A stretch of 64,000 nt of DNA from an uncultured Lachnospiraceae bacterium (GTDB lineage: Bacteria > Bacillota > Clostridia > Lachnospirales > Lachnospiraceae). The position numbers and the translations under genes are program-made. Where the stretch lies: the NCBI GenBank assembly GCA_949949005.1, contig CATLHM010000002.1, forward strand, positions 124,001 to 188,000, in the 5' to 3' direction. A model generated the notes under the pieces. That model was given only the letters and a program-made list of their open reading frames with translations, ran no database searches and was not told the origin of the DNA. Shown here piece after piece: positions 5,064 to 11,860 of this stretch (position 1 is its first letter; each line of letters begins with the position of its first letter).

Positions 5064-6509
5064 TCATCCCTTACAAAGCTCATACAGGGTCAATACCCCC
5101 ACCCCGGTTGCCCGTTTTTCCTGGTAGGCAAACACCGGCTTATCCACATCGGCGGTTCCTGCAATGTCCAGGTGAATCCAGGGCTTTCCCTTTGCAAAGT
5201 GCCGGATAAAAAGTCCCGCTGTGATGGCCGGGCAGGCGTCGCTCACATTCTTAATATCCGCCATGTCGCTCTCGATCATCTTTTCGTGCTCCCGGTACCA
5301 GGGAACACGGCAAAAACGCTCTCCTGTGCGCCCGGCCGCATCGAGAAATTCCTGACAGAACGCTTCCCCCTGTGCCATCAGGCCGGAAATGCTGTTTCCA
5401 AACATCCGCGCCATAGCTCCCGTCAGGGTGGCAATATCCACAACCCTGTCCGCATGTTCCCTGCGCAGGGCAAAGCTCACCGCGTCGGCAAGGATCAAAC
5501 GCCCTTCCGCGTCCGTATTCAAAATTTCTATCAGGGTTCCGTCTCCGGCTCTTACCACGTCTCCCGGGATCATGCTTCCCGGAGCAATCCGGTTTTCGCA
5601 CATGGGAATCACGCCGATCACATTGGCAGATATGCCGTTTGCGGCCAGGGCATACACCGTGGCGGCCACGGCGGCGCCTCCCGCCATATCCCCCTTGATG
5701 CCTGCCATGCTCTGGGCTCCTTTGAGGCAATAACCACCCGTATCACACATCACGCCTTTTCCCACCAGGGCGGTAATCTCCTCCGTCATTTCTTCGGATG
5801 GGGACTTCCCCGGCAGGTAACGCAGCACCAGCATACAGGGCGGATAGGCGCTGCTCTCCCCCACGGCCAGAAAGGCCCCCATGCCCTCCTCCTGAAGCCT
5901 TGCCAGGGGAAGAATCTCCGTTTCCACAGGAAGCCCCTCCATCAAAGCACTGATCTCAGCGGCAAAATCCTCCGGGCGCAGGTAATTGGCGGGCCGGTTC
6001 ACCATATCCCTTGCAAAAATCACCGCGCCTGCCAGTGTCCGCCCTTCCTGAATCAATCTCTCTGCCCTGGGGCTTTGCGCTATCCCTGTAAAAGTGACCT
6101 TCCGTCTTTGTTCCTCCTGATTTGAAAGCTTCTCCATCCGGTACAGCCCAAGTACGATCCCTTCCGCAGCCTCCTTTAAGACTTCCTCCCCCCACGCGGC
6201 AACAAGCGGCTTTATATCGCAGGAAAAATCTTCTATTCCCCGCTTTCCCATCTCCTTTGCCGCACAGGCGCAGATTTCACGGACCTTGCCGCTCTCCTTC
6301 CCTGCATCTCCCGCGCCCACCAGAAGCCGGAAGCCATTCTCCCCGGAGAGCTCCGCCCACTTTTCCAAAAATTTTCCATGGAACACCTTTGTCTCCCTGT
6401 CCCCTTCAAATTGGAACATCACATGGTTTTCCCTGATCTGATCCTGCACTTCAATCGCTACGGCATTCATTCTCTTCCGATCATAAGCTCTTTCCTGTCT
6501 TTTTTCCAT
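5064..6509 (-). CDS. pepA: Leucyl aminopeptidase, M17 family
   Basis: A cytosolic two-metal aminopeptidase that removes N-terminal residues from peptides. The 481-residue protein has a variable N-terminal macro-like domain and a catalytic domain from about residue 170. The metal and catalytic residues are present: GKGVMCDTGG (Lys and Asp), CLK (catalytic Lys), IKGDMAGGAAV (Asp), and the signature NTDAEGRL. The C-terminus keeps the usual HLDIAGTA. It is the last gene of a minus-strand run and its start overlaps the HD gene by 29 bases. The ATG at 6509 follows a GGGGAG site; a later ATG at 6470, behind GGAAGAG, is an alternative. Confidence 0.95.
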   Translation of the reverse strand: MEKRQERAYDRKRMNAVAIEVQDQIRENHVMFQFEGDRETKVFHGKFLEKWAELSGENGFRLLVGAGDAGKESGKVREICACAAKEMGKRGIEDFSCDIKPLVAAWGEEVLKEAAEGIVLGLYRMEKLSNQEEQRRKVTFTGIAQSPRAERLIQEGRTLAGAVIFARDMVNRPANYLRPEDFAAEISALMEGLPVETEILPLARLQEEGMGAFLAVGESSAYPPCMLVLRYLPGKSPSEEMTEEITALVGKGVMCDTGGYCLKGAQSMAGIKGDMAGGAAVAATVYALAANGISANVIGVIPMCENRIAPGSMIPGDVVRAGDGTLIEILNTDAEGRLILADAVSFALRREHADRVVDIATLTGAMARMFGNSISGLMAQGEAFCQEFLDAAGRTGERFCRVPWYREHEKMIESDMADIKNVSDACPAITAGLFIRHFAKGKPWIHLDIAGTADVDKPVFAYQEKRATGVGVLTLYELCKG

Positions 6510-7194
6510 TTTCTCCCCATACTCCTTTCAAAAGCTCTGTTCCCTTCTCATAAGAGGAGCCGACCTCGCGAACCAAAGCCTCATAAAAGGCCTCCGCCGC
6601 CTGTTGCCTTTCCTCTGCAATCGCTCTTGCTCTTTTTGTATAAAAACCGGAATACAAGTTTTTCAATTTATACTGATATTCCTGAAAAAAAGAAGGGGTT
6701 CCATCCTCTTTCCCGTCTGATACCGCCCCGTCGGGCAGAACGCAGTACAACGGCTCCGAAAGAATCCCTTTATACATCAGTGTCCGCGCAATTCCCACCG
6801 CCCCGGCAACATCAATTTTATCCGCATCAAACAAAATCCGGGCTTCTATGCTTTGGGGCGGAGTATCGCAGCGGTAACGGTGCGCCCGTATACATTCCGC
6901 CACCGCCTGTGCAACCCCCTCCTCAAAATGATTCTCAACCAGAAAACGAAAGGCCTTATCCGCTCCAACCCTTGCATGGCAGAGCTTTGGATTTTCAAGC
7001 TGCTCTTTCCTACCAATATCATGCAAAAGACAGGCACAGATCAGCACGTCATAATCCACCTTTTCCTCGCTCTGCGCTATGTCCAGCGCGTAATACAGAA
7101 CACGGTAAATATGCTGCCTGTCATGAACGCTGTCGCTCTCGTCCATGCATAAAATCATATAATTTTCCAGTAACTGATAAGTGCCTTTTTCCAT
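6481..7194 (-). CDS. HD-domain phosphohydrolase
   Basis: A soluble HD-superfamily hydrolase of about 237 residues. The metal-binding motif is CACLLHDIGRKEQ, with an upstream His in the DRQHIYRV segment and a downstream FDADKIDVAGAVGIAR, a pattern shared with YedJ-like uncharacterised phosphohydrolases. The ATG at 7194 is chosen because AGGAGAA lies about ten bases upstream; a GTG at 7224 keeps the frame open but lacks a site. It overlaps the aminopeptidase start by 29 bases. The substrate (a nucleotide or other phosphoester) cannot be told from sequence. Confidence 0.88.
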   Translation of the reverse strand: MEKGTYQLLENYMILCMDESDSVHDRQHIYRVLYYALDIAQSEEKVDYDVLICACLLHDIGRKEQLENPKLCHARVGADKAFRFLVENHFEEGVAQAVAECIRAHRYRCDTPPQSIEARILFDADKIDVAGAVGIARTLMYKGILSEPLYCVLPDGAVSDGKEDGTPSFFQEYQYKLKNLYSGFYTKRARAIAEERQQAAEAFYEALVREVGSSYEKGTELLKGVWGENGKKTGKSL

Positions 7195-7240: not shown

Positions 7241-7978
7241 TCACAAAGCCCTCCGGTAGGTATAAAATCTTCCTCTGTTTTCGCACCTCTCTAACACATT
7301 CAGGTAATTCAAAACGTGCAGGACGATTCCCGCAATCTGCTTTTTCTCCCCCACAGCCTTTCCAAACTCCAGAGCGGTGAAGGGCTCAGGCAGGTTTTCC
7401 GGAATCAGACTTAAGTAATCCTCCGGCTTTTCCAGACGGATTTCGTCAAGCAGCGCACGGGGAATCCTGTCATAGCGGCAGGAACCCTTCTTTTTATCCT
7501 GGCTCCATCCGTTCAAAAGCCGGTACTCCTCCACCTCCAGCAGGGGAAAGCAAAGACAGAGATTTTCCTGGGAAAGAATACTCTTGATCTTATACAATTC
7601 CACAAAGGCTCTGTAAACGGAGCCTCTCGCCGGGCTTTTGCGGGGCTTTGAGCATTCTCCTGTGGCCTCGTCAATCCAGCTTAAATACTTAATTCTGGCA
7701 ATAGGATATACCACCGTTACCGGGTAGTTGGGAAGAAAACAGTTCAGTTTCGCCCGCATCTTATTAAAATTCGCTGTCTGGATTTCGATGATCTCCTGTC
7801 CGGTATAAATATCCGCCACGTAGCCGTCCACAGAAATTTCCTGCATACTCTTATCCGGCGCATAGTAATCCTTCAGAATCGCGTGAAGCGTCTTTTCTTT
7901 ATAAGTGCCGATACTGCGGCCCTCTCTCCCTGAGCTGACCGCAGCATCCCTGATCTCTTCAAATCTTTTCGTATCCAT
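7241..7978 (-). CDS. Conserved protein with PD-(D/E)XK-like core and C-terminal winged helix (unknown function)
   Basis: A 245-residue soluble protein. Residues about 20-110 contain EGRSIGTYKEKTLH, then GYVADIYTGQEIIEIQT and an R-x-KL segment; the spacing D...E-x-Q fits a restriction-endonuclease-like fold with the final Lys replaced by Gln/Thr. The middle has VTVVYPIARIKYLSWID and RKSPARGSVY. Residues about 200-245 (FTALEFGKAVG... RGRFYTYRR) look like a winged helix. I recall similar hypothetical proteins in many Clostridia, often without defence neighbours. It follows GtrA by three bases and so belongs to the ATPase-nuclease transcription unit. The nuclease-like reading is an inference from motif spacing. 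Confidence 0.75.
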   Translation of the reverse strand: MDTKRFEEIRDAAVSSGREGRSIGTYKEKTLHAILKDYYAPDKSMQEISVDGYVADIYTGQEIIEIQTANFNKMRAKLNCFLPNYPVTVVYPIARIKYLSWIDEATGECSKPRKSPARGSVYRAFVELYKIKSILSQENLCLCFPLLEVEEYRLLNGWSQDKKKGSCRYDRIPRALLDEIRLEKPEDYLSLIPENLPEPFTALEFGKAVGEKKQIAGIVLHVLNYLNVLERCENRGRFYTYRRAL

Positions 7979-7981
7979 AGC

Positions 7982-8407
7982 CTATTTTCTTTCCAGAAAA
8001 AGCTTTCTTGAAATGAAATTGTAAACCATCACAATCCCCGTAGCCAGTATCGAACTGAGCGCCACCATATTTGCATGGCTCACAAGCTCCTGCAACTGTC
8101 CGCTGTGGGCATAGATACCGTCGATACACAGATACATCACAATTTCGTTGATGAGAAGCCCAAAGGCCGACAAAATCAAGAAAACCGTAAATTCCTTCTT
8201 TTTGTCCATCTCTTTTTTCTGGGTAAACACAAATTTGATGCTCAGAAGATAATTCACCACCGCGGATACCACAAATCCAAGAAACTTGGAAATCAGGTAA
8301 TGGATCCCCAGAAGATTGGTAAAGCCTGTGGTGATCCCAAAGTCAATCAGGAAACAGAACAGCCCCACAATGCCGAATTTTATGATCTGGTTTAATAGAT
8401 TCTTCAT
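7982..8407 (-). CDS. GtrA-like four-helix membrane protein
   Basis: A 141-residue membrane protein with four hydrophobic helices (about residues 8-28, 35-56, 72-95 and 112-134). The N-terminus KFGIVGLFCFLIDFGITTGF and the VNYLLSIKFVF segment are typical of the GtrA/DPMS family, which is thought to flip polyprenyl-phosphate sugars or assist cell-wall glycosylation. The ATG overlaps the stop of the upstream nuclease-like gene as ATGA (8404-8407), so it is translated together with that gene. There is no glycosyltransferase next to it, which is unusual for a GtrA with a sugar role. Confidence 0.88.
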   Translation of the reverse strand: MKNLLNQIIKFGIVGLFCFLIDFGITTGFTNLLGIHYLISKFLGFVVSAVVNYLLSIKFVFTQKKEMDKKKEFTVFLILSAFGLLINEIVMYLCIDGIYAHSGQLQELVSHANMVALSSILATGIVMVYNFISRKLFLERK

Positions 8408-9057
8408 GTTGTTTCTCCTCCGTTATACGCTTTGCATATGGATACTGTCAGATTTCCTTCCAGCGTCCCTTCTCTATTTCTTTCCATTTGAACCGGCAGA
8501 TGGATAAATGAAATACGCTCTCCAAAATTCAGCCCGAAATTTTCTCCCCTCCATTCCTGCTCCATCCTGACTGCAGGAATGCCTGTCCTTACCCGTCTGG
8601 CAGCAGGCATGGTGTCCGGGGGATTGAACCGCACCTTTTCAAAGGCCGTATACATAACAACATCCGAAACAGTAAGCTCCAGCATTCCTGCGATTGCCTG
8701 CGCCAGTAAATAACTGGCCCGGAATTTCCCTTTGATCTCAATCCACTTTCCCTCTCCCACACTGCTCTTCATCTCGATCAGATGAAGTCTCCAGCGCCTG
8801 GAATCCAGATGCTCAAAAATAATGTGATCCACCCTCTTATACATGGACTTGGACCTGTCGTTTTGAAAAAACAGCATGTCTGTCTTTTTCCCGTCCACAT
8901 TGGCAATACAAAGATTCTCCTTTGATGGCAGACATACCTTCAATTTACTTCTTCCCGTCTCCTCATATTCTTCCAGATCCACTTCATTTCCCCGAATCTG
9001 TATAAAATCCGGTGCCATCAGTTCTTTTATGATAAATTCTCTTTTGGTATTCTCCAC
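8404..9057 (-). CDS. PD-(D/E)XK-like putative nuclease paired with an OLD/SMC-like ATPase
   Basis: A 217-residue soluble protein not assigned to a named family by me. The stretch RVDHIIFEH, then LHLIEMKSSVGEGKW about fifteen residues later, then FRASYLLAQAIAGM has the Asp...Glu-x-Lys...Gln order of PD-(D/E)XK nucleases of the RecB/REase type. The GTG start at 9057 follows a CAGGAG site located in the end of the ATPase gene, only three bases after that stop codon; its own stop overlaps the GtrA start. Such tight packing with an ATPase suggests they act as a complex. Alternative reading: a non-catalytic member of the fold. Confidence 0.7.
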   Translation of the reverse strand: MENTKREFIIKELMAPDFIQIRGNEVDLEEYEETGRSKLKVCLPSKENLCIANVDGKKTDMLFFQNDRSKSMYKRVDHIIFEHLDSRRWRLHLIEMKSSVGEGKWIEIKGKFRASYLLAQAIAGMLELTVSDVVMYTAFEKVRFNPPDTMPAARRVRTGIPAVRMEQEWRGENFGLNFGERISFIHLPVQMERNREGTLEGNLTVSICKAYNGGETT

Positions 9058-9060
9058 GTC

Positions 9061-10434
9061 TTACTCCTGGATCCTGTAGGCTTCATCCATGATCTTATCC
9101 AACGCCTCGTTAAATGTGGGTATGACAAAGCCGTTCTGACCGCACTTAAGTTCCTCAACGGTTGTTTTTCCTTCCGGTCTGGATTTCAGTTGATAAACCT
9201 TAACCTGCCGTGGCTGCAAAAGCTCCTCCGAAGTATACCCCAGCTCCTGACAAATTTCGTTTTGCTCCTCCCGGCCAGATAAACAGATCATATTGTTGAT
9301 ATGCTGTAAAATAATATCGCTGTGCGTCGTTATGGCCAGAACAAGGCCACAGTTTACCATACGACAGATCACTTTCGCCATTTTGTGCTGAAGCTGGGGA
9401 TGCAGGCACATTTCGGGCTCTTCATAAAAAAGTGTTTGTAAATATTCTTTGTGCTTTAAGATCAGAATCAGCGGCGAAAGCTCTGTCACAACTGCCGAGA
9501 CCACCCGAAGCGGGAGCCCACTGCTCCTCCCTGCCGGGATATAGTCTCCTGCCGGCACGTAAGAAAGCTCCTTATTGGGAAGCGCGCTGATCTCAAGCGT
9601 TCCCTCCGCCATTCCGCTTTCAAGATATTGGGTAATCTCACTAAATTTTTTGTTTCCGCCGCTATCCGCGGTCAGATCGTTTATCACATCCAAAAACTGA
9701 TTTACCGGCCTTGAAAACGGGATTACCGTTTCCCGTTCCATCCTTATATTGAATGCGGTATTTCTCCCCACCTTATTGATAATGTCCTTTGTGAGCATGA
9801 AGCCCGTTCTCGACGAGGGAAGATAAATATCGGAATTGATATTGCTTTCTGCGAGATCAATATCCAAAACCATGCTGAAAACCGTAAAGATCATAAATCT
9901 GTCAATTTTCTCTTCTGCGTCCAGAAGCTTTTTGCTGGAATAGAACCTTCCAAATCTCTGAGTCTGTTCATTTCCGAAGGTAAACCCGCTGTCTTCATTG
10001 GCTTTTCTGTCCCTTTTTATCTTAAAGGTAACCTCTTCCAGGCCTTTCAGCTTAAGCCGGAGCCCTTTTATCCTTACATCCTTACTGTTAAATATCTTTT
10101 TAACCAGACCGTCCTTATTTCTTTTAAGCCATTTATCCAAAATCGACTGGCATATGTCTGCCACCTGGCTTACTTTGCAGATACAACTGCCCTTTTCCCA
10201 TGCAACTTTGATCTGCTCCCTGAGCCAGTTCATCAAAAGGTATTCTTCTTTCAGGGGCTTTCCGTCAACATCCCCGAGAAGTCCCTCCACTCCAAGATTT
10301 TTTATTCCCCACAAAAGCGTAAGCAAATAGCTTTTTCCACTGTTATTATCTCCCACGAAAAGAGTAAGCGGTGCCATCTCTATTTCTGCATATTCAATTT
10401 TCCCGTATTCCTGTACCTCCAATTTCCAATGCAT
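9061..10434 (-). CDS. AAA/ABC-type ATPase of the OLD/SMC-like (AAA_15/AAA_21) class
   Basis: A 457-residue ATPase. Walker A is GDNNSGKS at residues 28-35; the C-terminal half has the RSSGL segment near the signature position, Walker B LFYEEPEMCLHP and the switch region ITTHSD. The region between (about 60-290) is helical but too short for a long SMC coiled coil. This layout is found in ATPase subunits of many anti-phage systems (OLD, PARIS AriA, Septu PtuA, retron-associated ATPases) but no Toprim domain is fused. It is the first gene behind a good promoter (10490-10518) and is followed three bases later by the nuclease-like gene. The function as a defence sensor is an inference. Confidence 0.85.
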   Translation of the reverse strand: MHWKLEVQEYGKIEYAEIEMAPLTLFVGDNNSGKSYLLTLLWGIKNLGVEGLLGDVDGKPLKEEYLLMNWLREQIKVAWEKGSCICKVSQVADICQSILDKWLKRNKDGLVKKIFNSKDVRIKGLRLKLKGLEEVTFKIKRDRKANEDSGFTFGNEQTQRFGRFYSSKKLLDAEEKIDRFMIFTVFSMVLDIDLAESNINSDIYLPSSRTGFMLTKDIINKVGRNTAFNIRMERETVIPFSRPVNQFLDVINDLTADSGGNKKFSEITQYLESGMAEGTLEISALPNKELSYVPAGDYIPAGRSSGLPLRVVSAVVTELSPLILILKHKEYLQTLFYEEPEMCLHPQLQHKMAKVICRMVNCGLVLAITTHSDIILQHINNMICLSGREEQNEICQELGYTSEELLQPRQVKVYQLKSRPEGKTTVEELKCGQNGFVIPTFNEALDKIMDEAYRIQE

Positions 10435-10489: not shown

Positions 10490-10518
10490 AGTATATCTGT
10501 TTGTCACTTACATTTCAA
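10490..10518 (-). promoter_or_regulatory. Promoter of the ATPase-nuclease operon
   Basis: On the minus strand TTGAAA (10513-10518), a 17-base spacer and TATACT (10490-10495) form a sigma-A type promoter. The transcript would start near 10483, leaving a leader of about 50 bases before the ATPase start at 10434, which has a GGGCGGGAAG ribosome site. Confidence 0.65.
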
Positions 10519-10717: not shown

Positions 10718-11860
10718 ATGAATAGCCGTGCAGGTCATTATAAATCAAATTTATCAGGCGAAATGGCATACAAGTCTTTCGTGCCGAATCCTCTGCCTCC
10801 GGCTCCGCCTATCGAGCTAACAGAGGATATTGTCAGCTTACTCGTAAAAGCCAATTCCCAGCTCGCCATTTTGGAAAGTGTTGCTACCCGCATTCCCAAT
10901 GTGGAATTATTCGTATCTATGTATGTACGTAAAGAAGCATTGATGTCTTCGCAGATTGAGGGTACACAGGCAACCCTGGAAGATGTTCTTGATCCAATGC
11001 TGGAAGCCAACACAAACCGTAATGTTGCAGATGTTATAAATTATATTAAGGCGACCGAGTTTGCGATTGAGCGATTAAAGACTCTTCCGTTATGTAATCG
11101 CCTGATTAGGGAAACCCATGCAGCCTTGATGGACGGTGTACGAGGCCAAGAAAAAAGTCCCGGTGAGTTCAGACATTCTCAGAACTGGATTGGCGGTCAG
11201 GGCAGCACTCTCAAAAACGCCCGATACATTCCTCCAGCTCCCGATGATATGCTAGATGCAATGTCTGACCTCGAAAAATATATCAATGCCGATGATGAAC
11301 TTGATACTTTAATCCAAGCGGCATTGATACATTACCAGTTTGAAACCATCCATCCCTTCCTTGACGGAAATGGCCGTGTCGGCCGCTTGCTGATTACGCT
11401 GTTCTTAATGGAGAAAAAGGTCCTCACGACACCCGCTTTATACATTTCTTACTTCCTGAAAAAAAATCGTGTGGAATATTACGACCGCATGACTGAAGTA
11501 AGAACAAAAGGAAATTACGAGCAGTGGGTCAAGTTCTTCCTGCAAGCTATTATGGAATCTGCCGAAGATGCCACTGCAACAATTGATGAACTGATTGTTC
11601 TTCACGATGCCAATGTAACTATCATTTCCAAGCTGGGTCGTGCAGCTAAAAATGCAATACTCGTTTTTAACTACTTGGAGTCCAATCCTATTATCGAAAT
11701 TCGAAAAACGGCTGAGGCTTTAGGTATTACCTTTAATACTACATCCAGCGCAGTCAATCGTTTAGTCGATGCCGGTATTTTGTTCCAAACATCTGATACC
11801 AGCAGAAACCGTACTTTTGCCTATGAAGCATATCTGGATATTCTGCGCAAAGGAACTTGA
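10718..11860 (+). CDS. Fic-family protein (putative AMPylase) with internal inhibitory helix and winged-helix C-terminus
   Basis: Fic enzymes transfer AMP or related groups from nucleotides to target proteins. The 380-residue protein has an N-terminal Fic_N region with the inhibitory motif S77-SQI-E81-G82 ((S/T)xxxE(G/N)), a Fic core with the catalytic HPFLDGNGRVGR at residues 212-223, and a C-terminal winged-helix part (about 310-375: IRKTAEALGITFNTTSSAVN). The inhibitory motif lies N-terminal to the core, making this a class II Fic. The ATG at 10718 follows AAAGGAG. It is transcribed alone, divergent from the ATPase operon, and an inverted repeat overlies its promoter, suggesting autoregulation. 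The protein target is unknown. Confidence 0.93.
   Translation: MNSRAGHYKSNLSGEMAYKSFVPNPLPPAPPIELTEDIVSLLVKANSQLAILESVATRIPNVELFVSMYVRKEALMSSQIEGTQATLEDVLDPMLEANTNRNVADVINYIKATEFAIERLKTLPLCNRLIRETHAALMDGVRGQEKSPGEFRHSQNWIGGQGSTLKNARYIPPAPDDMLDAMSDLEKYINADDELDTLIQAALIHYQFETIHPFLDGNGRVGRLLITLFLMEKKVLTTPALYISYFLKKNRVEYYDRMTEVRTKGNYEQWVKFFLQAIMESAEDATATIDELIVLHDANVTIISKLGRAAKNAILVFNYLESNPIIEIRKTAEALGITFNTTSSAVNRLVDAGILFQTSDTSRNRTFAYEAYLDILRKGT

What the first reader, a model, noticed from the sequence alone, without database searches (positions are those of the whole stretch)
7241..10434. ATPase + PD-(D/E)XK-like nuclease + GtrA + second nuclease-like gene in one tight unit: possible uncharacterised defence system
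Behind one promoter (10490-10518) come an OLD/SMC-like ATPase without a Toprim, a small protein with the D...E-x-K...Q order of PD-(D/E)XK nucleases (RVDHIIFEH / LHLIEMKSS / LLAQA), a four-helix GtrA-like protein, and a second protein with a D...E-x-Q restriction-fold motif plus winged helix. Spacing is 3 bases, an ATGA overlap and 3 bases. ABC-type ATPase plus separate nuclease is a known anti-phage architecture (PARIS, Septu, retron ATPases), but I do not recognise this pair. A tiny membrane protein in the middle could be an effector. The defence role is an inference.
Basis: partly seen in the sequence, partly recalled or inferred. Interest (0 to 1): 0.75.

Follow-up and report, generated by a model that had tools for sequence, protein, structure and literature searches.

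The report
Two-gene phage-defence pair, known kind
Two of the four genes form a mobile ATPase-plus-nuclease pair related to known bacterial anti-phage systems (PD-T4-4 and WonAB), while the other two are ordinary genes of the host lineage that merely lie downstream of where the pair landed.

Summary
They are not one system. The ATPase (A, 9061-10434) and the 217-residue protein (B, 8404-9057) form an accessory pair: an A lies directly upstream in 11 of 11 other B loci, none with GtrA or the 245-residue gene nearby. GtrA and the 245-residue gene are a core operon, each in 34 of 37 genomes of the genus; A-B is in 2 of 37. In the nearest relative the stretch holding A-B and a Fic gene is missing. 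A matches PADLOC PD-T4-4_A (1.4e-38). B matches PD-T4-4_B only weakly (0.0081), but profile-profile comparison aligns D77, E95 and K97 with its catalytic motif (E 1.7e-6). Those residues are invariant in 11 of 11 aligned B proteins, on a predicted restriction-endonuclease-like core. The closest studied systems are PD-T4-4 and WonAB (PMC12137116), which aborts infection by stopping translation. Best reading: a divergent clostridial member of this known kind, in which A senses infection and licenses B, a suicidal nuclease.

The parts
9061..10434 (-). A: OLD/ABC-type ATPase, 457 aa, no Toprim; Walker A K34, R209 (SRTG), Walker B/catalytic E339, H-loop H371, conserved C-terminal extension
   Evidence: PADLOC PD-T4-4_A 1.4e-38; 11 of 11 aligned A proteins, window included, match PD-T4-4_A at E <= 1e-10; motif residues invariant in 11 of 11
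8404..9057 (-). B: PD-(D/E)xK-like nuclease, 217 aa, GTG start; D77, E95, K97
   Evidence: Invariant residues; AF2 model pLDDT 78.5 with restriction-endonuclease-like core; hhalign to a PD-T4-4_B set E 1.7e-6
10490..10518 (-). Candidate promoter for A-B (would also read into GtrA)
   Evidence: 10 of 12 consensus match; number of such sites in the region not clearly above shuffles
8404..8407 (-). ATGA overlap joining B to GtrA; junction of the accessory pair with the core operon
   Evidence: Sequence; empty-site comparison with L043
7982..8407 (-). GtrA-family membrane protein: host core gene, not part of the defence pair
   Evidence: In 34 of 37 genus genomes; no A/B at the locus in 22 of 22 genus neighbourhoods
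7241..7978 (-). 245-aa protein with REase-like N-terminal topology (D56, E65-x-Q67) and winged helix: host core gene, not part of the defence pair
   Evidence: In 34 of 37 genus genomes and 46 of 98 relatives, own included; model pLDDT 89.1
10718..11860 (+). Fic-domain gene (SoFic-like), divergent neighbour lying in the same lineage-specific stretch as A-B
   Evidence: PADLOC SoFic 7.1e-120; absent from the empty-site locus L043; 4 of 37 genus genomes, own included, have a match at 1e-40

Best explanation
A-B is a two-gene anti-phage pair of the OLD-ABC-ATPase + PD-(D/E)xK nuclease kind (PD-T4-4, PDC-M47, WonAB), carried as accessory cargo and inserted upstream of a core GtrA/245-residue operon. 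Shown here: gene pairing, accessory distribution, intact ATPase motifs, invariant D-E-x-K in B, homology to PD-T4-4 A and B. Inferred, by analogy with WonAB: A forms an ATP-bound dimer whose C-terminal extension holds B until a phage-derived cue changes the ATPase state. B then cuts an essential nucleic acid, more likely tRNA or rRNA than the chromosome, and the infected cell stops growing before phage release.
For: A is best matched by PD-T4-4_A, and all 11 aligned A proteins, the window's included, match it at E <= 1e-10. Profile-profile comparison of B with four PD-T4-4_B-matching proteins gives E 1.7e-6 (for that single comparison), probability 90, aligning D77/E95/K97 with the D...(D/E)xK motif; the one control, against the 245-residue family, gives E 0.099, probability 0.6. 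An A lies upstream in 11 of 11 other B loci. Counterparts of the residues tested in WonA (K34, R182, E300, H333; PMC12137116 section 7) are K34, R209, E339, H371, all invariant; the mapping is by motif and spacing. The pair is in 2 of 37 genus genomes and on two IMG/VR viral contigs. B decayed beside intact A (L069) and interrupted B (L088/L090) fit a costly effector. WonAB biology: PMC12137116 sections 7-9.
Against: The PADLOC B match is weak (0.0081), and none of four other B family members scanned matches PD-T4-4_B. Foldseek finds no PDB or viral match at E <= 0.001 for B. WonAB sequences were not obtained (one search found none), so the relation to WonAB rests on the paper and on shared motifs. 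No functional data exist for this pair. Some A homologues have another partner (L094) or none found (L091).
Confidence: 0.77

Rival explanations
1. Same A-B pair, but B degrades invading DNA directly (restriction-like), with A as a DNA-end or modification sensor, and the cell survives.
For: PD-(D/E)xK folds are mostly DNA nucleases (recalled); the non-significant Foldseek list for B is headed by restriction enzymes such as BsmI, with BbvCI, BstEII and BsaWI below.
Against: In WonAB, phage DNA replication proceeds (with a 2.7-fold defect) and genomic DNA stays intact on WonB overproduction while translation stops (PMC12137116 sections 8-9). The same Foldseek list also holds bunyavirus cap-snatching RNA endonucleases.
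Confidence: 0.2
2. All four genes form one functional defence operon, with GtrA as a membrane effector and the 245-residue protein as a second nuclease.
For: Spacing of 3 bases, ATGA overlap and 3 bases; the 245-residue protein has a REase-like topology.
Against: GtrA and the 245-residue gene occur together without A-B in 22 of 22 genus neighbourhoods read; A-B occurs without them in 11 of 11 other loci; in G310 A-B and GtrA lie on different contigs.
Confidence: 0.04
3. A-B is a toxin-antitoxin or DNA-repair pair, with defence only a side effect.
For: B decay beside intact A (L069) would fit a toxin with A as its antitoxin.
Against: For WonAB, WonB was not toxic without WonA, which argues against simple sequestration (PMC12137116 section 9); the sparse distribution does not fit a repair gene.
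Confidence: 0.1

Closest known systems
PD-T4-4 (E. coli, Vassallo et al. 2022, PMC9519451; PADLOC PDLC04032-04037)
   Same: Two genes, ATPase then nuclease (order seen in the related pairs); ATPase matches PD-T4-4_A at 1.4e-38; B has the same D...(D/E)xK motif, aligned by profile comparison
   Different: B is so divergent that the best PADLOC B model scores it at 0.0081 only; none of four other family members scanned (L006, L007, L009, L012) matches PD-T4-4_B
WonAB (V. cholerae WASA-1 prophage, PMC12137116) and the 'OLD-ABC ATPase + novel REase' operon it cites (Krishnan et al. 2020, not seen by me)
   Same: OLD-ABC ATPase without Toprim plus PD-(D/E)xK nuclease, two-gene operon; tested WonA residues have invariant counterparts in A
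   Different: Sequences not compared here; B is 217 aa against a 16.1 kDa WonB; the paper describes WonAB homologues as mainly from Gram-negative bacteria
PDC-M47 (PADLOC candidate system)
   Same: A matches PDC-M47A at 1.6e-31; the related locus L071 is a PDC-M47 pair whose A also matches PD-T4-4_A at 4e-143; L072's partner also matches PDC-M47B
   Different: B has no PDC-M47B match at E <= 1
PARIS, Septu, Gabija/OLD
   Same: ABC-type ATPase sensor with a nuclease (recalled)
   Different: Lower A scores (AriA 8e-21, GajA 1e-10, PtuA 2e-8, 25 of 96 families shown) and different effector domains (recalled)

Membership tests
PD-T4-4 superfamily (PD-T4-4 / PDC-M47 type pairs) | ATPase of the PD-T4-4_A family | tested here: met
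   1.4e-38 over residues 4-450; 11 of 11 aligned A proteins, window included, at E <= 1e-10
PD-T4-4 superfamily (PD-T4-4 / PDC-M47 type pairs) | Adjacent downstream small PD-(D/E)xK protein homologous to PD-T4-4_B | tested here: met
   hhalign E 1.7e-6 for a single comparison, probability 90, catalytic residues aligned; direct PADLOC score weak, 0.0081
PD-T4-4 in the strict PADLOC sense | B recognised by PD-T4-4_B models | tested here: inconclusive
   Best 0.0081 over 56 residues; 0 of 4 other family members scanned match a PD-T4-4_B model at E <= 1
PD-T4-4 superfamily | Protects against phage | not testable with these tools
   Needs experiment
WonAB | ATPase residues K34/R182/E300/H333 of WonA | tested here: met
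   Counterparts K34, R209, E339, H371 invariant in 11 of 11; mapped by motif and spacing, not by alignment to WonA
WonAB | Sequence relation to WonA/WonB | not tested
   WonAB sequences not found
WonAB | ATPase C-terminal extension binds the nuclease | not tested
   Extension present and conserved; no complex predicted
OLD family nucleases (class 1/2) / Gabija | C-terminal Toprim domain (recalled) | tested here: not met
   No Toprim among the Pfam matches of A
PARIS | AriB partner (recalled) | tested here: not met
   B has no Pfam match and only one PADLOC match, not AriB, at E <= 1
Septu | HNH partner PtuB (recalled) | tested here: not met
   B has no HNH or PtuB match at E <= 1

The most novel reading that the evidence does not exclude
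A-B is a separate branch of the PD-T4-4/WonAB superfamily, centred on Lachnospiraceae and kin, whose B is an unprofiled PD-(D/E)xK effector family that current defence-finding models miss and which may cut a different target from WonB; capture upstream of GtrA has put a core operon under its promoter.
Probability: 0.4. Interest if true: 0.45.

Novelty: new member of a known kind. Interest (0 to 1): 0.36.

Why it matters
It extends a recently described abortive-infection superfamily to gut-type clostridia, shows that its effector diverges fast enough to be nearly missed by current defence models, and separates the real two-gene system from a misleading four-gene 'operon'. The target of the nuclease (suspected tRNA or rRNA in WonAB) is an open question that more divergent members could help settle.

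Tried and rejected
Four-gene unit: rejected by neighbourhoods. GtrA as effector: rejected on the same ground. The 245-residue protein as part of the system: it is a core gene. Its nuclease-like topology is read from the model's secondary structure; Foldseek gave no match at E <= 0.001 and the 50 rows shown of 1377 are mostly winged-helix regulators, so no fold search supports the nuclease half. Pfam gave only weak matches, at most 3 of 26 members per family at E <= 0.1, and solved-structure sequences nothing better than 0.07. B against solved structures by sequence: nothing below 0.77. Phage and plasmid collections with B: no match at 0.01. One class-wide B hit (L093, 6e-4) lies in a repeat-rich protein and was dropped as chance. 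Flanking direct repeats that would mark an insertion: none convincing. VIA-align library was not available. The fold of B rests on 11 sequences; the L005 B, whose listed ORF has a different N-terminus, was left out of the B alignment, and the L010 ATPase, cut by its contig start, out of the A alignment.
Full report
Observation. The ORFs lie at 9061-10434 (A, 457 aa), 8404-9057 (B, 217 aa), 7982-8407 (GtrA, 141 aa) and 7241-7978 (245 aa), all on the - strand, with gaps of 3 bases, an ATGA overlap and 3 bases. Close homologues align from the GTG start of B. A promoter-like site is at 10518-10490, but the region holds about as many such sites as shuffled sequence (12 against 8.9 +/- 3.0).

What A is. 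Pfam gives AAA_15 at 9.1e-19 and no Toprim. PADLOC gives PD-T4-4_A 1.4e-38, PDC-M47A 1.6e-31 and AriA 8.3e-21, with Old, GajA and PtuA weaker (25 of 96 families shown). All 11 aligned A proteins, the window's included, match PD-T4-4_A at E <= 1e-10. Walker A (GDNNSGKS, K34), R209 in SRTG, E339 in EEPE and H371 in THS are invariant in 11 of 11. These correspond by motif and spacing to the four WonA positions whose mutation abolished protection (K34, R182, E300, H333; PMC12137116 section 7). The nearest solved sequence relative is an OLD-family nuclease, 6p74, over about 95 residues of the ATPase.

What B is. B has no Pfam, NCBIfam or PHROGs family at E <= 1 and a weak PD-T4-4_B match (0.0081). 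Eleven aligned B proteins share six invariant columns, three of them D77, E95 and K97. The AlphaFold2 model (pLDDT 78.5, pTM 0.79) puts a strand at 78-83, a strand 88-100 bearing E95 and K97, a helix 102-125 and a strand 129-142, the layout of a PD-(D/E)xK core. Foldseek found no PDB match at E <= 0.001. By my recalled knowledge of the families, 18 of its top 20 rows are restriction or nicking enzymes (8) or bunyavirus polymerases or endonucleases (10), which carry such a nuclease; but the best E is 0.014 and TM-scores in the top 20 are at most 0.24, so this is suggestive only. The viral library gave nothing at E <= 0.001. Profile comparison of the 11 B proteins with four proteins that follow A-like ATPases in named records (L063-L066, all matching PD-T4-4_B at 1.1e-12 or better) gives E 1.7e-6 for that single comparison, probability 90, aligning D77 and E95-x-K97 with their D and (D/E)-x-K. 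The one control, the same comparison with the 245-residue family, gives E 0.099, probability 0.6.

Pairing. B was found in 4 loci of genome contigs and, in a family sample of 299 genomes, in 7 genomes at 8 places including the window's own. In all 11 loci other than the window (two of them from one genome, G278) an A lies directly upstream; in L010 it is cut by the contig start, and in L005 the A-B junction looks disturbed, since B-like sequence begins at residue 39 inside the end of A. By eye the genes that follow B differ from locus to locus, and no GtrA or 245-residue homologue was found in any of the 11 (E <= 1e-3); flanks of L006-L012 are only about 1.5 kb. Starting from A instead, the eight places outside the window were: L068 (the same place as L006) and L095 with a B; L069 with a decayed B; L071 and L072 with PDC-M47B partners, that of L072 cut by the locus end; L070 and L096 with another small protein bearing a D...DxK motif by eye; and L094 with a 463-residue neighbour that matches no PADLOC family at 0.01. 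Among viral contigs, L089 and L090 carry A with B, the L090 B being interrupted, and L091 has A without a detectable B. B is rare: 2 of 391 class genomes at 1e-3, one of them the window's own and the other (L093) dropped as chance.

GtrA and the 245-residue gene. The 245-residue gene is in 46 of 98 relatives and 34 of 37 genus genomes, own included, counted from the rows. GtrA is in 34 of 37, one of them a partial match. A is in 3 of 37 and B in 2 of 37 (own and G310), and in G310 the A-B contig (C285) is not the GtrA contig (C23). In 22 of 22 genus neighbourhoods read (19, 3) GtrA directly precedes the 245-residue gene and no A or B is present. Outside the genus GtrA was seen beside the 245-residue gene in 0 of 12 loci, so that pairing is itself a feature of the genus. 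In the closest relative (G318, L043; GtrA 91%, 245-residue protein 87% identical) the homologue of the 12064-13683 gene is followed after 203 bases by GtrA; in the window 3,656 bases holding A-B and a Fic gene take that place. A, B and Fic have 44.5, 45.3 and 43.5% G+C, GtrA 41.5%, and the upstream flank gene 52.7%, so composition is only mild support. No flanking repeat marks the insertion. B ends in a low-confidence tail (residues 208-217) encoded by what looks like the ribosome-binding region of GtrA: I read the tight spacing as a product of the insertion junction, not of co-evolution. That reading is inference.

The 245-residue protein. No fold match supports the nuclease half, and no Pfam family matches more than 3 of 26 members at 0.1. 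It is a core gene of unknown role and not part of the pair.

Mechanism. Shown in print for WonAB: both genes are needed; ATPase and nuclease residues are needed; infection is aborted after phage DNA replication starts; WonB overproduction kills only with active WonA, leaves DNA intact and stops translation; an rRNA or tRNA target is suggested by the authors (PMC12137116 sections 7-9). I carry this to A-B by analogy: the family link to PD-T4-4 is tested here, the mechanism is not. The same paper states that WonAB resembles PD-T4-4 and an 'OLD-ABC ATPase + novel REase' operon. Papers seen: PMC12137116 (outline, sections 7-9, passages); PMC9519451, PMC10952713 and PMC12409358 (passages). Krishnan et al. 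2020 was not seen. I make no claim that this exact pair is absent from print; my searches were for PD-T4-4, WonAB and ABC-ATPase/OLD/REase terms (listings only except for the papers named).

Host. The named B relatives are titled Lachnospiraceae, Clostridiaceae and Hungatella (2), from which I infer a gut-type clostridium.

Verdict. A real, accessory two-gene ATPase-nuclease pair of a known anti-phage kind, with a divergent effector, next to a SoFic-like gene; the other two genes are host background.

Noticed in passing
10718-11860: SoFic-like Fic gene (PADLOC SoFic 7.1e-120) on the opposite strand, in the same lineage-specific stretch as A-B: possibly a two-system defence island.
   Followed up: partly
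7241-7978: Widely kept clostridial protein family without a Pfam model: predicted REase-like topology with D...E-x-Q plus winged helix, in 46 of 98 relatives, own included.
   Followed up: partly
6481-7188: HD-domain gene lies between the 245-residue gene and the M17 peptidase gene in the window, but no homologue was detected in the closest relative's matching stretch (L043, E <= 1e-8); a homologue is on L005 about 5 kb from that locus's A-B pair.
   Followed up: no
L069:2838-3100, L088/L090: B is decayed or interrupted beside an intact A, as expected for a costly effector.
   Followed up: partly
L089 and L090: Much the same A-B pair in two IMG/VR contigs with different upstream genes, one beside an integrase-like ORF (by eye): perhaps a mobile cassette.
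   Followed up: no
L096:712-1416 and L070:2900-3577: A-family ATPases paired with another small protein bearing a D...DxKK motif; L070's has no PADLOC match at 0.01, L096's was not scanned; perhaps a further effector branch.
   Followed up: no
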